Shown: positions 157 to 13,646 of the stretch, piece by piece
How positions within the stretch are numbered: position 1 is the stretch's first letter
Layout: every line of letters starts with the position of its first letter
DNA from: Spartobacteria bacterium
GTDB taxonomy: Bacteria; Verrucomicrobiota; Verrucomicrobiia; Chthoniobacterales; UBA6821
Assembly (NCBI GenBank): GCA_947466005.1
Contig: CANIBV010000003.1
Span: 1 to 53,387 of the forward strand
Length of the DNA: 53,387 nt
Direction: 5' to 3'
Notes under the pieces: model-generated
Databases searched by the model: none
Told to the model about the DNA's origin: nothing
What the model saw: the letters and a program-made list of their open reading frames with translations, nothing else
Position numbers and translations under genes: made by a program

Positions 157-251
157 GCGCGGAGTGGCTGTTAAGTGGGAAATCAGACCGAAGGTTTTAA
201 TCTGGAACTCATGAACTCATGAACCAAGGCGCTGGGAAGCGGTGCGGAAGA

Positions 252-304
252 CTGCCGAAGGCAGCCCCGAAGGGGTGGCACAGCTTCTCGGGAGAGAAGT
301 GCCA
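252..304 (+). other. Three adjacent hairpins in the leader of the next gene
   Basis: Three hairpins lie side by side: CTGCC-GAA-GGCAG (252-264), CCCC-GAA-GGGG (265-275), and a longer one pairing TGGCAC (276-281) with GTGCCA (299-304) that encloses TTCTC-GGGA-GAGAA, a stem capped by a GNRA-type tetraloop. They sit about 25 nt upstream of the ATG at 330, so they would lie in the 5' untranslated region of that gene. The preceding bases (GGGAA...GGTG) recall parts of a cobalamin riboswitch, but the full conserved core is not present and I do not call it one. Confidence 0.4.
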
Positions 305-329
305 TCAACCTGAAGAAGAAAAATTTACC

Positions 330-908
330 ATGAAGAGCATGCAGCAGATGGCCGAGAGGCTAGGGAGGTCGGCGGTGTGGATCAGCGGTGTGCAGAAGCG
401 GTTTAGTCTGCCTGTGCTGGAGAGCTATTCCGAGGGGTACGAAGCATTTCTCCGTAAGATCCTGCATCTGCGTGTGCTCGGCGTAAGCGAGGAGTCCCTC
501 CGAGAATTCTGGGCTGCGGAGCGGAAGCTGATCGAGGTGCTCCATCTGGATCCACAGAGCTCTCCAACCTGGATGGTCGATGCCTGCTCCGTAGCAGCCG
601 ATCCCGATCGTCGTCTCCTGCTCTCCAACATCGACCTCGGCTTTAATCTTCCGTCCACCTCTATCCAGATCGGCTTGAACTTTGCAGCCTCCTCCCCCGA
701 ACTCTTCGCAGGGAAGGAGATGGGCGAGGACGCCCTGAGACTGATCAGTGACTACCGCACCCGTCTTGCTGGGATACGTGTGTCCGTAGCTTCGGAATCC
801 AAAATCCTCCGCGATGCCCTCAAGTGGGAGAAGTCCCTCGGACTTACTCGGTTCCCTTTCGATGGGAAGTATACGTACCCAGAAGAAAAAATGCATCCCA
901 TGGACTGA
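330..908 (+). CDS. Hypothetical protein with MerR-like N-terminal helices
   Basis: The track ORF starts at 219, but its first 37 codons run through a short repeat and a hairpin cluster. I prefer the ATG at 330 (protein 'MKSMQQMAERLGRS...', 192 aa), preceded by a weak GAAGAAG purine stretch. Residues 1-70 ('MAERLGRSAVWISGVQKRF...YSEGYEAFLRKILHLRVLGVSEESLREFW') read like a degenerate winged-helix specificity domain followed by a helical segment as in MerR-type proteins. The rest is soluble and unrecognised. No catalytic motif is visible. It stands alone, 86 bp upstream of the methyltransferase on the same strand. The function is unknown; a regulatory role is only a guess from the N-terminus. 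Confidence 0.6.
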   Translation: MKSMQQMAERLGRSAVWISGVQKRFSLPVLESYSEGYEAFLRKILHLRVLGVSEESLREFWAAERKLIEVLHLDPQSSPTWMVDACSVAADPDRRLLLSNIDLGFNLPSTSIQIGLNFAASSPELFAGKEMGEDALRLISDYRTRLAGIRVSVASESKILRDALKWEKSLGLTRFPFDGKYTYPEEKMHPMD

Positions 909-994
909 TGCAAACGAAGGTTTCTAGGCTGTTCAATGAAAGAAGTTATGGCTGTGGCTTGCAGTTAATCGCATCTAATGTGAAATAATCCCTT

Positions 995-2029
995 ATGGCT
1001 TTTTCATCTGTGGAATTATGTGCGGGTGGTGGCGGCCAATCCTTAGGACTCGAGCTAGCTGGTTTTCACCATGAAGCAGTTGTGGAATATGAGTCACTAT
1101 TCTGCACAACTCTTAGAAAAAATCGCCCGCACTGGAATGTGCTGGAAATGGATATTCGTGAATTCACGGGGCAAAAATATTCAGGGGTTGATCTTTTAGC
1201 GGCAGGAGTACCCTGTCCCCCTTTCAGTACTGCAGGCAAACAACTTGGGGCAGACGATGACCGCGATATGTTTCCTGCGGCTTTAAGTCTGGTCTCCCAG
1301 ATAAAGCCTCGAGCAGTGCTTTTTGAAAATGTACAAGGGTTAGCGTCGGCAAAGTTTACGGATTACCGCAACAAGCTTATCCGAAAATTATCCGCATTGG
1401 GCTATCAGCCGGATTGGCGAGTGCTTCAAGCTTCCGAGTTCGGTGTTCCTCAACTCCGCCCGCGATTTATTTTAGTAGCACTACGGCCTTCAGATGCAGA
1501 GCACTTTGCGTGGCCTGTTTCATGGGGAGCTAAGCGTTTTGTTGGAGAATCACTTCTAGATTTGATGGCAGAAAACGGATGGGCCCACACAGAGACTTGG
1601 GCTGGAAGAGCCGCTCGTGTAGCGCCTACCCTTGTAGGCGGATCGAAAAAGCATGGCGGCCCAGATTTGGGTCCAACTCGAGCAAAGCGGCAATGGAGAG
1701 ATCTAGGAGTTGACGGAATGGGCATTGCTGATTCTGCGCCTGGTCCTGACAAGGATGCTGATCATTTGCCTCGGCTAACACTTCGCATGGCTGCTCGAAT
1801 CCAGAGTTTCCCTGACACATGGGAGTTTGCTGGAGGAAAAACCGCTCAATATAGGCAAATTGGGAACGCGTTTCCGCCTGCGGTAGCGAGAGTAGTTGGT
1901 GCTGCTATACGTTCGGCATTTGAGCGAAAGAAGTTCTTGTCTGGCCTCAAGTTTGAAAAAGCTGACCAGCTCCGCCTGATGGAGTCACCATCTAGCTCAA
2001 AGCCAAAAACTCGTAAAAAATCTGTATGA
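995..2029 (+). CDS. DNA (cytosine-5-)-methyltransferase of a type II R-M system
   Basis: This 344-aa protein carries the ordered C5-methyltransferase motifs. Motif I is 'ELCAGGGGQSLGLELAGF' (residues 7-24, SAM binding), motif IV 'GVPCPPFS' with catalytic Cys74, motif VI 'ENV' (111-113), motif VIII 'QLRPR' (153-157), a short target-recognition region around 190-250, motif IX near 'RLTLRMAARIQSFPDTW', and motif X 'QIGNAFPPAVARVVG'. It would methylate a cytosine in the site cut by the endonuclease encoded next, whose ATG overlaps this stop by 4 nt (ATGA). If the partner's NgoMIV relationship holds, the site is probably GCCGGC; that is inference. Base composition is visibly more AT-rich than flanking genes, which suggests horizontal acquisition. 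Confidence 0.95.
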   Translation: MAFSSVELCAGGGGQSLGLELAGFHHEAVVEYESLFCTTLRKNRPHWNVLEMDIREFTGQKYSGVDLLAAGVPCPPFSTAGKQLGADDDRDMFPAALSLVSQIKPRAVLFENVQGLASAKFTDYRNKLIRKLSALGYQPDWRVLQASEFGVPQLRPRFILVALRPSDAEHFAWPVSWGAKRFVGESLLDLMAENGWAHTETWAGRAARVAPTLVGGSKKHGGPDLGPTRAKRQWRDLGVDGMGIADSAPGPDKDADHLPRLTLRMAARIQSFPDTWEFAGGKTAQYRQIGNAFPPAVARVVGAAIRSAFERKKFLSGLKFEKADQLRLMESPSSSKPKTRKKSV

Positions 2030-2907
2030 CTCAAACTTCATTGATCTCTAAAGAAAGGGCGGCTTTTCACTCATTGCTGTTGGCGGGACCGCTCACAAGT
2101 GATTCCAAGGGGATTTTGAGTATCGCAGACAAAGGAAGTGCTATCAGTCGCGTTATTTCAACTGAGTTAGCGAAAAAATTGGGATCCCCACGAATTTCAA
2201 AAAAGGGCGGAGGGCAAACGGCGGGAGCTGCTTTTGAGAATATCGTTGCCCGATTTTTAAGAGCAACGTTTCTATCACTCAAGGATCTTAGGCCTGGCTC
2301 TTGGGAGGTTCTTGATACAAGTACCGGTGGAAAAGTTCAGATTGCTAACTTTACCCAGTATGAACATCTGCTTCGATTGAAAGAGAAAGCAGATGCGGAT
2401 CCCGATTTACGAGCCATTCTGGGTGGTGATTACCTAATTGCACCCGATGTAGTTGTTGTACGCACTTCAGAGCCCGACAAGATGATTAATAAATCTACGC
2501 GCGTTGTTGATATGAATACAGCACGACTGACACCCCTGCGTACTACTAACTCAAAAGGTGGAGAGGCACGTTTTCTTCATGCAAGCGTTTCATGCAAATG
2601 GACCCTTAGAAGTGATCGGGCTCAAAATGCCCGAAGTGAAGCGCTAAACCTTTTGAGAAATCGCAAAGGCCATGCTCCTCATGTTGTAGCCATAACTGCC
2701 GAACCCATGCCTTCACGAATTGCGAGTCTAGCACTCGGAACCAATGATCTTGATTGTGTCTATCATATCGCCCTGCCCGAGTTGATAGATGTGGTAAAGC
2801 AGTCGGTTAGTGACGAACGCTCTGGTCAACTCGAAATGCTAGAGATGCTTGTTTCTGGAAAGCGTCTACGCGATATTTCTGATCTTCCGCTGGACTTAGC
2901 TATATAG
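2026..2907 (+). CDS. NgoMIV-family type II restriction endonuclease
   Basis: This 293-aa protein has the Cfr10I/NgoMIV arrangement of active-site residues: Glu71 in 'AAFENIV', Asp141 in 'LIAPDVVVV', then 49 residues to Lys191 in 'SVSCKWTLRS', then 13 residues to Glu205 in 'ARSEA'. This is the PD-X(46-55)-K-X(13)-E pattern known for that group, and the positions nearly coincide with those recalled for NgoMIV (E70, D140, K187, E201). NgoMIV cuts GCCGGC as a tetramer, so the same or a related site is predicted. It is translationally coupled to the methyltransferase by an ATGA overlap. It is complete, with no sign of inactivation, and AT-rich like its partner. Confidence 0.9.
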   Translation: MTQTSLISKERAAFHSLLLAGPLTSDSKGILSIADKGSAISRVISTELAKKLGSPRISKKGGGQTAGAAFENIVARFLRATFLSLKDLRPGSWEVLDTSTGGKVQIANFTQYEHLLRLKEKADADPDLRAILGGDYLIAPDVVVVRTSEPDKMINKSTRVVDMNTARLTPLRTTNSKGGEARFLHASVSCKWTLRSDRAQNARSEALNLLRNRKGHAPHVVAITAEPMPSRIASLALGTNDLDCVYHIALPELIDVVKQSVSDERSGQLEMLEMLVSGKRLRDISDLPLDLAI

Positions 2908-10372: not shown

Positions 10373-12238
10373 TCAGCGCCCGCTCTCCAACTTGCGCATC
10401 CAGACGGATAGGACGGAAATATCGGCCGGGGTGATGCCGCTAATCCTCGATGCCTGGCCCAGGGTGCCGGGAGAGTAATCGCGGAGCTTCTGCCTCGCCT
10501 CAAGCCTCATACTCGGAATGGCATCGTAGTCGATGCCGCTCGGAATGGTGTTTTCCTCCTGTTGCCGCTGGCGATCGATCTGATCCTGCTCCCGCCTAAG
10601 GTAGCCCTCGTATTTCAGGTCCGTCTCAACCAACCCCCATATCTCGGCGGGGTATTGGGCGAGCAGCTCGGTCGGGAGCTTGAGGGGCGTGTTCTCCGTG
10701 CGCTTCAACCACTGGTTCAACGGGATCCCATCCTGCTGAATACGGGTTGCTTCCTCATGAAGGGCCTTGAGCGCGGCCTTTTTCCCAAGGAAGGATGCCC
10801 GCCTGTGTTCACAAGCCATTCCTATATCTAAAGCCTTGTCAGTCAATCTTATATCACAATTATCTTGTCGTAATCGCAACCTGTATTCTGCGCGGCTGGT
10901 GAACATGCGATACGGCTCAGGGGTACCCCTTGTGACTAGGTCGTCGATCATGACACCGATGTAGGCCTCCTCCCTGCCCAGTACCAAGGGATCCTTCCCT
11001 TGAACTTTCTGAGCGGCGTTGATGCCGGCCATGAGCCCCTGCGCGGCGGCCTCTTCGTACCCGGAGGTTCCGTTGATCTGCCCGGCAAAGTAGAGCCCTT
11101 CGATACGCTTAGTTTCTAGGGTGGAGTGCAGTTGGTGTGGTGGGCAGTAGTCGTATTCCACCGCGTAGCCGGGACGGAGAATCTCCGCATTCTCCAGTGC
11201 TGGGATGGAGCGGATGAAGGCGTACTGAATGTCGTAGGGAAGACTAGTTGAGACACCATTCACGTAGATCTCGCCAGTATGACGGCCTTCGGGTTCCAGA
11301 AAAATCTGGTGGCGGGTCTTGTCCGCGAACTTCACCACCTTATCCTCGATGGAGGGGCAGTACCTTGGCCCGACCCCATCGATCACGCCTGCATAGAGGG
11401 GGGATTGGTGGAGGTTCGATCGAATGATCTCGTGGGTTTGCTCGGTCGTGTAAGTGATCCAGCACGGGATTTGTTCCACATGGAACATTCCTTCCTTAAA
11501 ATGGTTCAACGTATGAAGTTCGTCCTTGTCCCTTCCGATGCTCTCTGGGATGTGGGAAAAAAGTGGCGTCGGAGTATCTCCGTCTTGACGCTCACACTTG
11601 GTGAAGTCAATGGACTTGGCCAAGAGTCGGCAGGGGGTTCCCGTCTTAAATCGACCGACCTCGAATCCAAGCTCCTTCAAATGGTCGCTCAGTGTGGAGA
11701 TGGAATCGCCCATTCTTCCTCCGGCCTGGGTTTTTAATCCCACGTGGAGCAGGCCACGCATGAAGGTCCCCGTCGTAATGATGACGCTGCGGGCCGAGAA
11801 GCTGATACCGAGATTTGTTTCCGCCCCGGTGACCCGATCCTGCTTCACCAACAGATTGGTGATGTTGGCCTGCTTCAGCGAAAGATTAGGAAGGTTTTCC
11901 AGAAGAGCCTTGAGGCGGAATTGATAAGCCTTCTTGTCGCACTGTGCCCTGGGTGCTCGGACGCTTGGCCCCTTTGAAGCATTCAACATTCGAAACTGGA
12001 TTCCTGTGGCATCCGTATTCAGCCCCATAACTCCTCCGAGCGCATCAATCTCCCTCACCATATGACCCTTGGCAAGTCCCCCTATCGCCGGGTTACAAGA
12101 CATCTGAGCAATCGTGTCAGCATTCTGCGTAAGGAGAAGCGTTTTTGCTCCAAGTTTTGCCGCTGCATGGGCGGCTTCGACTCCGGCGTGTCCTGCTCCG
12201 ATCACCAACACATCGAACTGCTCAGGATAGATAAACAT
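10373..12238 (-). CDS. mnmG: tRNA uridine-5-carboxymethylaminomethyl modification enzyme MnmG (GidA)
   Basis: MnmG, with MnmE, installs cmnm5U34 in tRNAs using FAD and methylene-THF. The 621-aa protein shows '[21 protein letters not shown]', '[22 protein letters not shown]', 'GTPCRL', '[12 protein letters not shown]', '[16 protein letters not shown]' and a complete C-terminal helical domain. Residues around 236-256 ('[22 protein letters not shown]') form an insertion relative to E. coli MnmG, and 'MFHVEQ' (251-256) is encoded by a 16-bp parS-like palindrome. mnmG/gidA frequently lies beside bacterial replication origins, and here the upstream region has origin-like features. Confidence 0.97.
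11472..11487. promoter_or_regulatory. parS-like palindrome inside mnmG
   Basis: TGTTCCACATGGAACA has 7-bp arms, TGTTCCA/TGGAACA. It differs from the general ParB-binding parS consensus TGTTNCACGTGNAACA only at one of the two central bases. It is the exact reverse complement of the palindrome at 12256-12271. It is translated in frame as part of 'MFHVEQ' in MnmG. Confidence 0.55.
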
Positions 12239-12255
12239 GAATTTTTGTGTGCCTG

Positions 12256-12271
12256 TGTTCCATGTGGAACA
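12256..12271. promoter_or_regulatory. parS-like palindrome upstream of mnmG
   Basis: TGTTCCATGTGGAACA is identical, in inverted orientation, to the site at 11472-11487. A shorter relative, TGTTTCATGGAACA, lies at 12383-12396 and lacks two central bases. Placement beside mnmG and AT-rich DNA fits a centromere-like site for ParB. Confidence 0.55.
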
Positions 12272-12462
12272 TTTATATAAATATCTACCTATTAGGTAAT
12301 TATTATAAATTTATTCTTTTCTTTTCGTTCGTTGATGAATTGTGAGTGTTCTGTGAACCCTTGTGGGGAGATGGGATACTTTTGTTTCATGGAACATGTT
12401 TCCCGTCGGGGGCTACCAATGGCTCCATCCAGGTTCACACGGTTATTGGTTCTGTAGCTCTC

Positions 12463-12471
12463 TGTGGATAA
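12463..12471 (-). promoter_or_regulatory. DnaA box TTATCCACA
   Basis: TGTGGATAA on the plus strand is the perfect consensus DnaA box on the minus strand. It sits in the AT-rich intergenic region next to mnmG and is accompanied by two 8-of-9 matches within 100 bp. Confidence 0.6.
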
Positions 12472-12656
12472 GGGGATTAAATGGTCTTTGAACAGGTTCT
12501 TCACACTATTATTATTAAGAAGTACCTCTTTAAAAAAGAAATCTATCCATCATCCGTGTGAATATCTTCTTTGAGCCAAGTAGTGGGTTGAGATCAACAA
12601 GCTGGCACAAGAAATCTTTCAGCTGAGCCGGGAGTCGAGTTAGATTCTTAATCCTC

Positions 12657-13646
12657 ATGGGATCAGCATCGTTGAAAAAAGAACCAAAGGGAACAAAGAC
12701 GTTGTTTCTTTGGCTCTTCCTTGGATGCCTGTTTTTTTCCCTTCTCGTGCATCTCTGTTTTTTCATCAAGTCCCAAAGCTGGAGGGTCACAGGATTTTCA
12801 GCCACCAATTACGACACGATCGTACCCAGGACTTTCAGAATGAAGAGAGTGGAGATCGATCCCAAGGTACTGGCGGAAGAGGTGACGGAGACCGTTAAGA
12901 AAAGAGTTCCCCAATCAGTGGTTCTAGAGAAGGAACAGCCGGGAGACCAAAATATCCTTACAAAGGAAGCACCAGCACCTCTCCTTACAAAGCCTGCGGA
13001 TCTACTCCCTGAGGGAAGAGAAGGGTCAACGCAGGGCGGCTATCCCTTGGAACAGTTGCAGACATTAAATTCCCCTGCAGGAGAGTTGGCTAGTAAAGAG
13101 AGCGCGATCTTAATGCCAAAAGCTCGGGATACGGATCGCTCGCTCCCAGAGCCTGAAGGAATCAGTGCGGGGAAAGATGAACCACGAGCCGGGGAAGGAA
13201 ATGAAGAAGGAGTGAAAGCGATCTCTGGGGGGAACGGGAAATTCAGTAATCTGGACCAACTCCTTTCGGGAAACACCACGGTATCAGCTCAGACGGCCCC
13301 GATACTCATGCCCACGGATCTCCTCTTTGAGTATGACTCCGACAGCCTCAAGCCCGCAGCGGCTGAATCATTGACCAAACTCGGGGCACTGATCGAAAAG
13401 AATGCCCAGGCTAACTTTCGTATTGAAGGGCACACTGATTCTTATGGAAGTGACGAGTATAACAAGAGCCTCAGCCTTAGAAGGGCCGAAGCAGTCAAGG
13501 TATGGTTGCAGCAGCGGATGGGTATAGAAGCCGGTAGAATCACCACGGCGGGACTCGGAAAGAGCAGGCTGCTGGTTCCGGCCACGGGTACGGTGCAAGA
13601 GCAACAACTCAACCGCCGTGTGGAGATAGTGATCTCAACACACTAG
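12657..13646 (+). CDS. Membrane-anchored OmpA/Pal-domain protein
   Basis: The 329-aa protein has a short basic N-terminus, one membrane segment (about residues 15-37, 'LFLWLFLGCLFFSLLVHLCFFI'), a long polar Pro/Glu-rich linker, and a C-terminal OmpA-like peptidoglycan-binding domain (about 215-329) with 'LLFEYDSDSLKPAAAESL', 'RIEGHTDSYGSDEYNKSLSLRRAEAV' and 'NRRVEIVI'. The anchor is a transmembrane helix rather than a lipobox, so it would tether peptidoglycan from the inner membrane, somewhat as MotB or TonB-like proteins do. It is the first gene right of the candidate origin. No clear Shine-Dalgarno precedes the ATG. Confidence 0.88.
   Translation: MGSASLKKEPKGTKTLFLWLFLGCLFFSLLVHLCFFIKSQSWRVTGFSATNYDTIVPRTFRMKRVEIDPKVLAEEVTETVKKRVPQSVVLEKEQPGDQNILTKEAPAPLLTKPADLLPEGREGSTQGGYPLEQLQTLNSPAGELASKESAILMPKARDTDRSLPEPEGISAGKDEPRAGEGNEEGVKAISGGNGKFSNLDQLLSGNTTVSAQTAPILMPTDLLFEYDSDSLKPAAAESLTKLGALIEKNAQANFRIEGHTDSYGSDEYNKSLSLRRAEAVKVWLQQRMGIEAGRITTAGLGKSRLLVPATGTVQEQQLNRRVEIVISTH

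What the first reader, a model, noticed from the sequence alone, without database searches (positions are those of the whole stretch)
12239..12656. Candidate replication origin beside mnmG
The stretch combines an AT-rich block in GC-rich DNA, a perfect DnaA box, two 8-of-9 boxes, and a parS-like palindrome. Genes to the left are mostly leftward and genes to the right rightward for about 16 kb, as expected for leading-strand bias from an origin here. mnmG/gidA adjacency to oriC is known in many bacteria.
Basis: partly seen in the sequence, partly recalled or inferred. Interest (0 to 1): 0.72.

Follow-up and report, generated by a model that had tools for sequence, protein, structure and literature searches.

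The report
Verrucomicrobial chromosome replication origin beside mnmG
The short AT-rich gap next to the gene mnmG is very probably where this lake bacterium starts copying its chromosome: the same arrangement of initiator-binding sites, close to the DNA handle used to pull chromosome copies apart, recurs across the bacterial phylum Verrucomicrobiota, usually far from the dnaA gene that is often taken to mark the origin.

Summary
The window is a contig of a Spartobacteria/Chthoniobacterales (Verrucomicrobiota) MAG. The 418-bp mnmG–ompA-like gap (39% GC against 59%) contains a parS-like site and a cluster of DnaA-type boxes. In 13 congeners most footprints sit at near-constant positions: parS, a 14-mer TGTTYCATGRAACA, boxes at about -145(-), -66(+), 0(+), +60(-), and a trinucleotide run after the 0 box (DnaA-trio-like).

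A 51-nt core profile, searched over 3.9 Mb, hits only within about 10 kb of mnmG or parS at E<=1, never at dnaA. In one Terrimicrobiaceae genome whose parS pair lies ~440 kb from mnmG, the core lies 6 kb from parS. In two complete genomes sampled GC skew switches sign in an interval containing mnmG/parS, not at dnaA.

A second parS is encoded inside mnmG (MFHVEQ codons, held at GC3 0.21-0.88) across most of the order.

Not shown: initiation itself, DnaA or ParB binding, or a skew switch in this window. It is an ordinary kind of object (bacterial oriC plus centromere) with a phylum-specific layout.

The parts
10373..12238 (-). mnmG (gidA), tRNA uridine-5-carboxymethylaminomethyl synthesis enzyme; carries an internal parS
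   Evidence: TIGR00136, 798 bits
11472..11487 (.). parS site 1, inside the mnmG coding sequence (codons of MFHVEQ)
   Evidence: conserved in 28 of 30 mnmG loci of the order; codon constraint
12239..12656 (.). intergenic region proposed as oriC
   Evidence: 39% GC, densest T[TC]CACA cluster of the window; footprints
12256..12271 (.). parS site 2, TGTTCCATGTGGAACA
   Evidence: present at this place in all genus members examined
12272..12325 (.). AT-rich block next to parS; AT-rich in all congeners, sequence not conserved
12352..12360 (-). DnaA-type box (GGGTTCACA), offset -145 from the core box
12383..12396 (.). 14-mer TGTTTCATGGAACA, a parS-like palindrome with a shortened centre; conserved in the genus and recognisable in the sister genus; binder unknown
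12431..12439 (+). DnaA-type box (AGGTTCACA), offset -66
12463..12471 (-). exact DnaA box TTATCCACA; not conserved in most relatives
12497..12505 (+). core DnaA-type box TTCTTCACA
   Evidence: core profile hit 12493-12539, the only one in the window
12506..12517 (+). trinucleotide run CTA TTA TTA TTA (complement 3'-GAT AAT AAT AAT), DnaA-trio-like
   Evidence: rule in PMC8287927
12557..12565 (-). DnaA-type box ATATTCACA, offset +60
12657..13646 (+). OmpA-like protein gene, first rightward gene; borders the gap

Best explanation
The gap 12239-12656 is the chromosomal replication origin (oriC) of this Verrucomicrobiota bacterium, flanked by its centromere. DnaA, made from a gene elsewhere (another contig), binds four oriented boxes at about -145(-), -66(+), 0(+) and +60(-). 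From the box at 12497-12505 a DnaA filament runs onto the adjacent trinucleotides (12506-12517) and opens the duplex for helicase loading; forks then leave in both directions. ParB binds the two parS sites, one in the gap and one written into the mnmG coding sequence 784 bp away, so that ParA moves the new origins apart soon after initiation. Shown here: the sequence elements, their conservation and spacing, their linkage to mnmG/parS rather than to dnaA, and the skew switch in relatives. Inferred: protein binding, unwinding, initiation and segregation.
For: Box enrichment. Footprints in 13 congeners, with a related core in the sister genus. Box-to-trinucleotide distance conserved. Core profile over 3.9 Mb (2.25 Mb of it outside mnmG/parS loci): all hits within ~10 kb of mnmG or parS, none at dnaA; profiles from the genus alone and from other families alone find each other. 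Spacing -145/-66/0/+60 shared with other families. In G038, where parS is ~440 kb from mnmG, the core is 6 kb from parS. GC skew switches in the interval holding mnmG/parS in G069 and G143, with dnaA inside a negative block; near mnmG in G029. No box cluster at dnaA in the genus. Literature: ori from parS plus skew with agreeing coverage in a strain set that includes Akkermansia muciniphila, not always at dnaA (PMC10197239).
Against: No skew switch in this window and none clean within 10 kb of mnmG when averaged over relatives. Skew resolution is ~110 kb (G069) and ~280 kb (G143). The core profile found nothing in the mnmG gaps of several families (e.g. no hit in G029). Trinucleotide phase 2 scores almost as high as phase 0. 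M. infernorum was assigned an origin next to dnaA (PMC2474590). No binding or initiation data.
Confidence: 0.87

Rival explanations
1. Only the centromere is here: the region is a parS/ParB-loading locus and the true initiation site lies some kb to tens of kb away. The TTCACA boxes would be secondary DnaA sites (titration or timing control).
For: parS can lie kilobases from oriC in other bacteria (general knowledge). Skew resolution in relatives is coarse. In other families the core is 3-9 kb from mnmG.
Against: The core with box+trinucleotide and four-box spacing is in this very gap in the whole genus and is the only profile hit in the window. It stays near parS when parS is elsewhere in G038.
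Confidence: 0.08
2. The gap is a divergent promoter/regulatory region for mnmG and the OmpA-like gene, and the TGTGAA/TTCACA elements are sites of a CRP/FNR-type regulator; the real origin is elsewhere.
For: The genes diverge; TGTGA/TCACA words resemble CRP half-sites (general knowledge).
Against: The boxes are single sites at -145, -66, 0, +60, not TGTGA-N6-TCACA palindromes. The module is found between or near different genes in other families and follows parS, not mnmG. The fuller boxes vary as T[TC]NT[TC]CACA, which fits DnaA boxes.
Confidence: 0.04
3. The origin is at dnaA, as often assumed, and the mnmG features are coincidence of AT-richness and protein conservation.
For: DnaA boxes are short and degenerate; several complete genomes start their numbering at dnaA; M. 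infernorum claim (PMC2474590).
Against: Skew sign does not change at dnaA in G069 and G143. No box cluster or core at dnaA. parS codons in mnmG are TTC 37/37, GTG 36/37, GAA 37/37, CAA 34/37 against 40-53% use in the same genes, while Terrimicrobiaceae-type genes read FHARQ and the like without parS (sequences are related, so counts are not independent).
Confidence: 0.01

Closest known systems
Bacillus subtilis oriC unwinding region and the bacterial basal unwinding system (DnaA-box + DnaA-trios; PMC6669920, PMC8287927)
   Same: DnaA-type box followed directly by trinucleotides whose complement reads 3'-GAT AAT AAT AAT, within the 0-16 bp rule
   Different: Core boxes are TTNTTCACA rather than TTATCCACA, spacer is 0-3 bp, no adjacent tandem box; unwinding not tested; dnaA is not adjacent
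Escherichia coli oriC (gidA-oriC-mioC; general knowledge)
   Same: Origin in the gap upstream of mnmG/gidA and away from dnaA
   Different: E. coli has no ParABS/parS system; box arrangement differs
Chromosomal ParABS centromere (parS TGTTTCACGTGAAACA, Livny et al. 2007 as cited in PMC10197239)
   Same: 16-bp palindrome near the origin, parB present in the genome
   Different: Centre and flanks read TGTTCCAYRTGGAACA; usually one or two sites per genome; one is encoded inside mnmG; parB is on another contig
Origins of gut bacteria including Akkermansia muciniphila YL44 (PMC10197239)
   Same: Same phylum; origin assigned by parS cluster plus GC skew, coverage agreeing; the authors warn that ori does not always coincide with dnaA
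   Different: No sequence anatomy in the passages read; in Akkermansia-like genomes parS lies in a different part of mnmG

Membership tests
DnaA-dependent bacterial oriC | Cluster of DnaA boxes above chance | tested here: met
   TTCACA 4 against 0.13 expected; densest T[TC]CACA cluster in the window; conserved positions. Boxes are variants, mostly 7-8 of 9 to TTATNCACA.
DnaA-dependent bacterial oriC | AT-rich unwinding region | tested here: met
   39% GC against 59%; AT-rich block in all congeners
DnaA-dependent bacterial oriC | Lies at the GC-skew sign change, in relatives | tested here: met
   G069 and G143 sampled skew, G029; coarse resolution
DnaA-dependent bacterial oriC | Lies at the GC-skew sign change, in this genome | tested here: inconclusive
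   No switch in the 53-kb window; MAG too fragmented (139 contigs)
DnaA-dependent bacterial oriC | dnaA gene present in the genome | tested here: met
   C7:9841-11208
DnaA-dependent bacterial oriC | Initiation occurs here / DnaA binds | not testable with these tools
   Needs coverage, binding or plasmid assays
Basal unwinding system (DnaA-box + DnaA-trios) | Box, 0-16 bp spacer, at least three NAN trinucleotides on the complementary strand | tested here: met
   TTCTTCACA followed by CTA TTA TTA TTA (rule). Several congeners have only two uninterrupted triplets.
Basal unwinding system (DnaA-box + DnaA-trios) | DnaA-dependent strand opening | not testable with these tools
   Needs purified DnaA
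ParABS centromere (parS) | 16-bp palindrome close to the canonical parS | tested here: met
   3 mismatches to TGTTTCACGTGAAACA, 1 to TGTTCCACGTGGAACA; conserved in the order and seen in 164 of 241 phylum genomes
ParABS centromere (parS) | Chromosomal ParB in the genome | tested here: met
   C13:6133-6669, TIGR00180 196 bits
ParABS centromere (parS) | ParB binds the site | not testable with these tools
   Needs ChIP or gel shift

The most novel reading that the evidence does not exclude
Verrucomicrobiota share one ancestral origin-centromere module of a layout not described elsewhere: four TTNTTCACA-type boxes at -145/-66/0/+60 with a trinucleotide run. Many families outside the own genus also carry one or two GTGGAAC half-parS words between the boxes (at -43/-21), so that ParB may act on origin opening itself. 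It is paired with parS sites recorded inside the mnmG coding sequence, and origin and parS move together when the chromosome rearranges, independent of dnaA.
Probability: 0.35. Interest if true: 0.7.

Novelty: new member of a known kind. Interest (0 to 1): 0.52.

Why it matters
It gives a sequence-level origin for a phylum (including Akkermansia-like genomes) in which several complete genomes begin their numbering at dnaA although the sampled skew switch lies elsewhere. That affects growth-rate estimates from peak-to-trough coverage, chromosome maps and any replicating-plasmid work in Verrucomicrobiota. The parS written into mnmG codons is a clear case of a centromere under selection inside a protein gene, and the Terrimicrobiaceae, which lack it there and carry parS and the origin core together elsewhere, are a natural experiment on what must stay linked.

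Tried and rejected
Xiphinematobacter-like G028: no DnaA match, no ParB match and no parS; its skew has more than one switch (~61 kb and ~450 kb) with mnmG at 124 kb; judged uninformative. Averaging skew within 10 kb of mnmG over ~50 loci: dominated by gene content, no clean switch. First guess of the G038 contig number was wrong. Perfect TTATCCACA as the key element: rejected, not conserved. parS in mnmG as mere protein conservation: rejected by codon use and by Terrimicrobiaceae. First idea that the sister genus had no origin there: rejected for several members, whose gap keeps a TTATTCAC + TTATTATTA-type core. Papers on Verrucomicrobia parS/oriC: nothing specific found among open papers; Livny et al. 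2007 is not held. DoriC entries could not be consulted.

Full report
What the window is. The window is contig C3 of a 1.55-Mb, 139-contig, 77%-complete MAG. Its MnmG is 82-85% identical to that of uncultured Spartobacteria/Chthoniobacterales, Verrucomicrobiota. The stretch 12239-12656 is the gap between mnmG (10373-12238, -) and an OmpA-like gene (12657, +). dnaA and parB are on other contigs.

Observation. The AT-rich gap (39% against 59% GC), the unique exact TTATCCACA (12463, -) and the parS-like palindrome (12256-12271) are real. The two '8-of-9' boxes exist against TTATNCACA (12497 +, 12557 -) but not against TTATCCACA. TTCACA is present four times where 0.13 is expected, and T[TC]CACA is densest here in the whole window. 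A second parS-like site lies inside mnmG at 11472-11487; the two are the only such sites in the window and the only exact matches to TGTTCCAYRTGGAACA in the genome as held. Gene directions are as stated, but there is no GC-skew sign change here.

Conservation in the genus. Aligning 13 congeneric gaps gives footprints in otherwise poorly alignable DNA: parS, a 14-mer TGTTYCATGRAACA (12383-12396 here), TTCACA boxes at near-constant positions, and a TTCACA-TTATTATTA core. The exact TTATCCACA is not among them. In the sister genus the gap keeps a TTATTCAC + TTATTATTA-type core and a recognisable 14-mer, but not the intergenic parS. After the core box, 50 of 80 triplets are NTN in phase 0 over 16 sequences, and the window reads CTA TTA TTA TTA, complement 3'-GAT AAT AAT AAT. 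This meets the published box-spacer-trio rule (PMC8287927). Phase 2 scores almost as high (47), because the triplets are mostly TTA, so the register claim rests mainly on the unchanged distance from the box.

Conservation in the phylum. A 51-nt profile of the core was searched over 3.9 Mb held here, of which 2.25 Mb are neither mnmG nor parS loci. All 48 hits at E<=1 lie within ~10 kb of mnmG or parS; none is at a dnaA locus. Much of the searched DNA was fetched because it surrounds mnmG, so the 2.25 Mb is the relevant control. Profiles built from the own genus only, or from other families only, recover each other. Boxes around many of the hits repeat the spacing -145(-), -66(+), 0(+), +60(-), and in many families outside the genus one or two GTGGAAC-type words sit at -43 and -21. 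In other families the module is about 3-9 kb from mnmG, on either side.

Natural experiment. Terrimicrobiaceae-like genomes lack parS at mnmG; in G038 the only parS pair is at 908.0-909.1 kb of a contig whose mnmG is at about 466 kb. The core profile hits at 901.9 kb, 6 kb from parS, with boxes at -65, 0, +60. Skew near mnmG shows no clear switch within a mostly negative arm, and it changes near 912 kb, though noisily. The origin core went with parS, not with mnmG.

Position of the origin in complete genomes. Twenty 20-kb samples each: G069 (Akkermansia-like, 2,650,075 bp) turns from - to + between about 954 and 1066 kb, with mnmG at 969.6 kb and parS at 971.2 and 976.5 kb; G143 (5,957,605 bp, the size I recall for Opitutus terrae PB90-1) turns between 931 and 1208 kb, with mnmG and parS at 1085 kb. 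dnaA is at base 31 and 50, inside a negative block in both. G029 of the same order changes near 60 kb, with mnmG at 62.6 kb and dnaA at 553 kb. In a 12-strain gut set that includes A. muciniphila YL44, ori was assigned from parS and GC skew, read coverage agreed, and ori did not always match dnaA (PMC10197239). Against a universal rule, M. infernorum was assigned an origin 250 nt upstream of dnaA (PMC2474590); in the single-contig genomes of what I take to be its genus (G086, G116, G195) mnmG lies several tens of kb from dnaA, so the two may not conflict.

parS inside mnmG. The internal site codes for MFHVEQ in a loop 17 residues longer than in the best-matching solved MnmG (3cp2, 3ces) and 11 longer than in chain 2zxh, just before the conserved PCW. 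Of 30 mnmG loci from the order, 28 keep a site within two mismatches there; the two without are G027 and G037, both of one family (f7). In 37 distinct genes with FHVEQ the codons TTC, GTG, GAA, CAA are used 37, 36, 37 and 34 times, against 40-53% in the same genes, at GC3 from 0.21 to 0.88; Terrimicrobiaceae-type genes read FHARQ, FHTRQ and the like without parS. Further families carry two or three sites in a larger insertion at the same loop (G125, G134, G171), and Akkermansia-like genomes carry the site near the 3' end of mnmG. This is selection on DNA, not only on protein.

Mechanism. Shown: elements, conservation, spacing, linkage. Inferred: DnaA binds the boxes, extends from 12497-12505 over the trinucleotides and opens the DNA; ParB loads on the two parS sites and the new origins are moved apart. 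The roles of the 14-mer and of the GTGGAAC words are open.

Verdict. A DnaA-type oriC with adjacent parS at 12239-12656: probability 0.87. A known kind of object, but with a conserved layout for the phylum that I did not find described in the papers I could search.

Noticed in passing
window 219-2907: A Dcm-like cytosine methyltransferase (995-2029) with two flanking ORFs of no NCBIfam family, in DNA of lower GC (46-56%) than most of the window; possibly an acquired restriction-modification module.
   Followed up: no
window 12383-12396: 14-mer TGTTTCATGGAACA, like parS with two central bases missing, conserved in the genus and recognisable in the sister genus; its binder is unknown.
   Followed up: partly
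G125, G134, G171 (L235, L240): Two or three parS sites lie within an extra insertion in the mnmG coding sequence at profile positions ~226-233.
   Followed up: partly
G066, G069, G078, G157 (L248-L251): In Akkermansia-like genomes parS lies near the 3' end of mnmG and a second, one-mismatch site about 5 kb away, so parS seems to have entered mnmG at more than one place.
   Followed up: partly
G028 (L027, L157-L176), G101: Xiphinematobacter-like 0.9-Mb genomes give no DnaA match and no parS match (G028 also no ParB match); mnmG of G028 still reads FHVKQ with a degenerate parS-like relic.
   Followed up: partly
L137:11595-11838: Six TTATYCACA boxes within 240 bp in an AT-rich stretch about 4 kb past the mnmG end, a strong origin candidate in that contig.
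   Followed up: no
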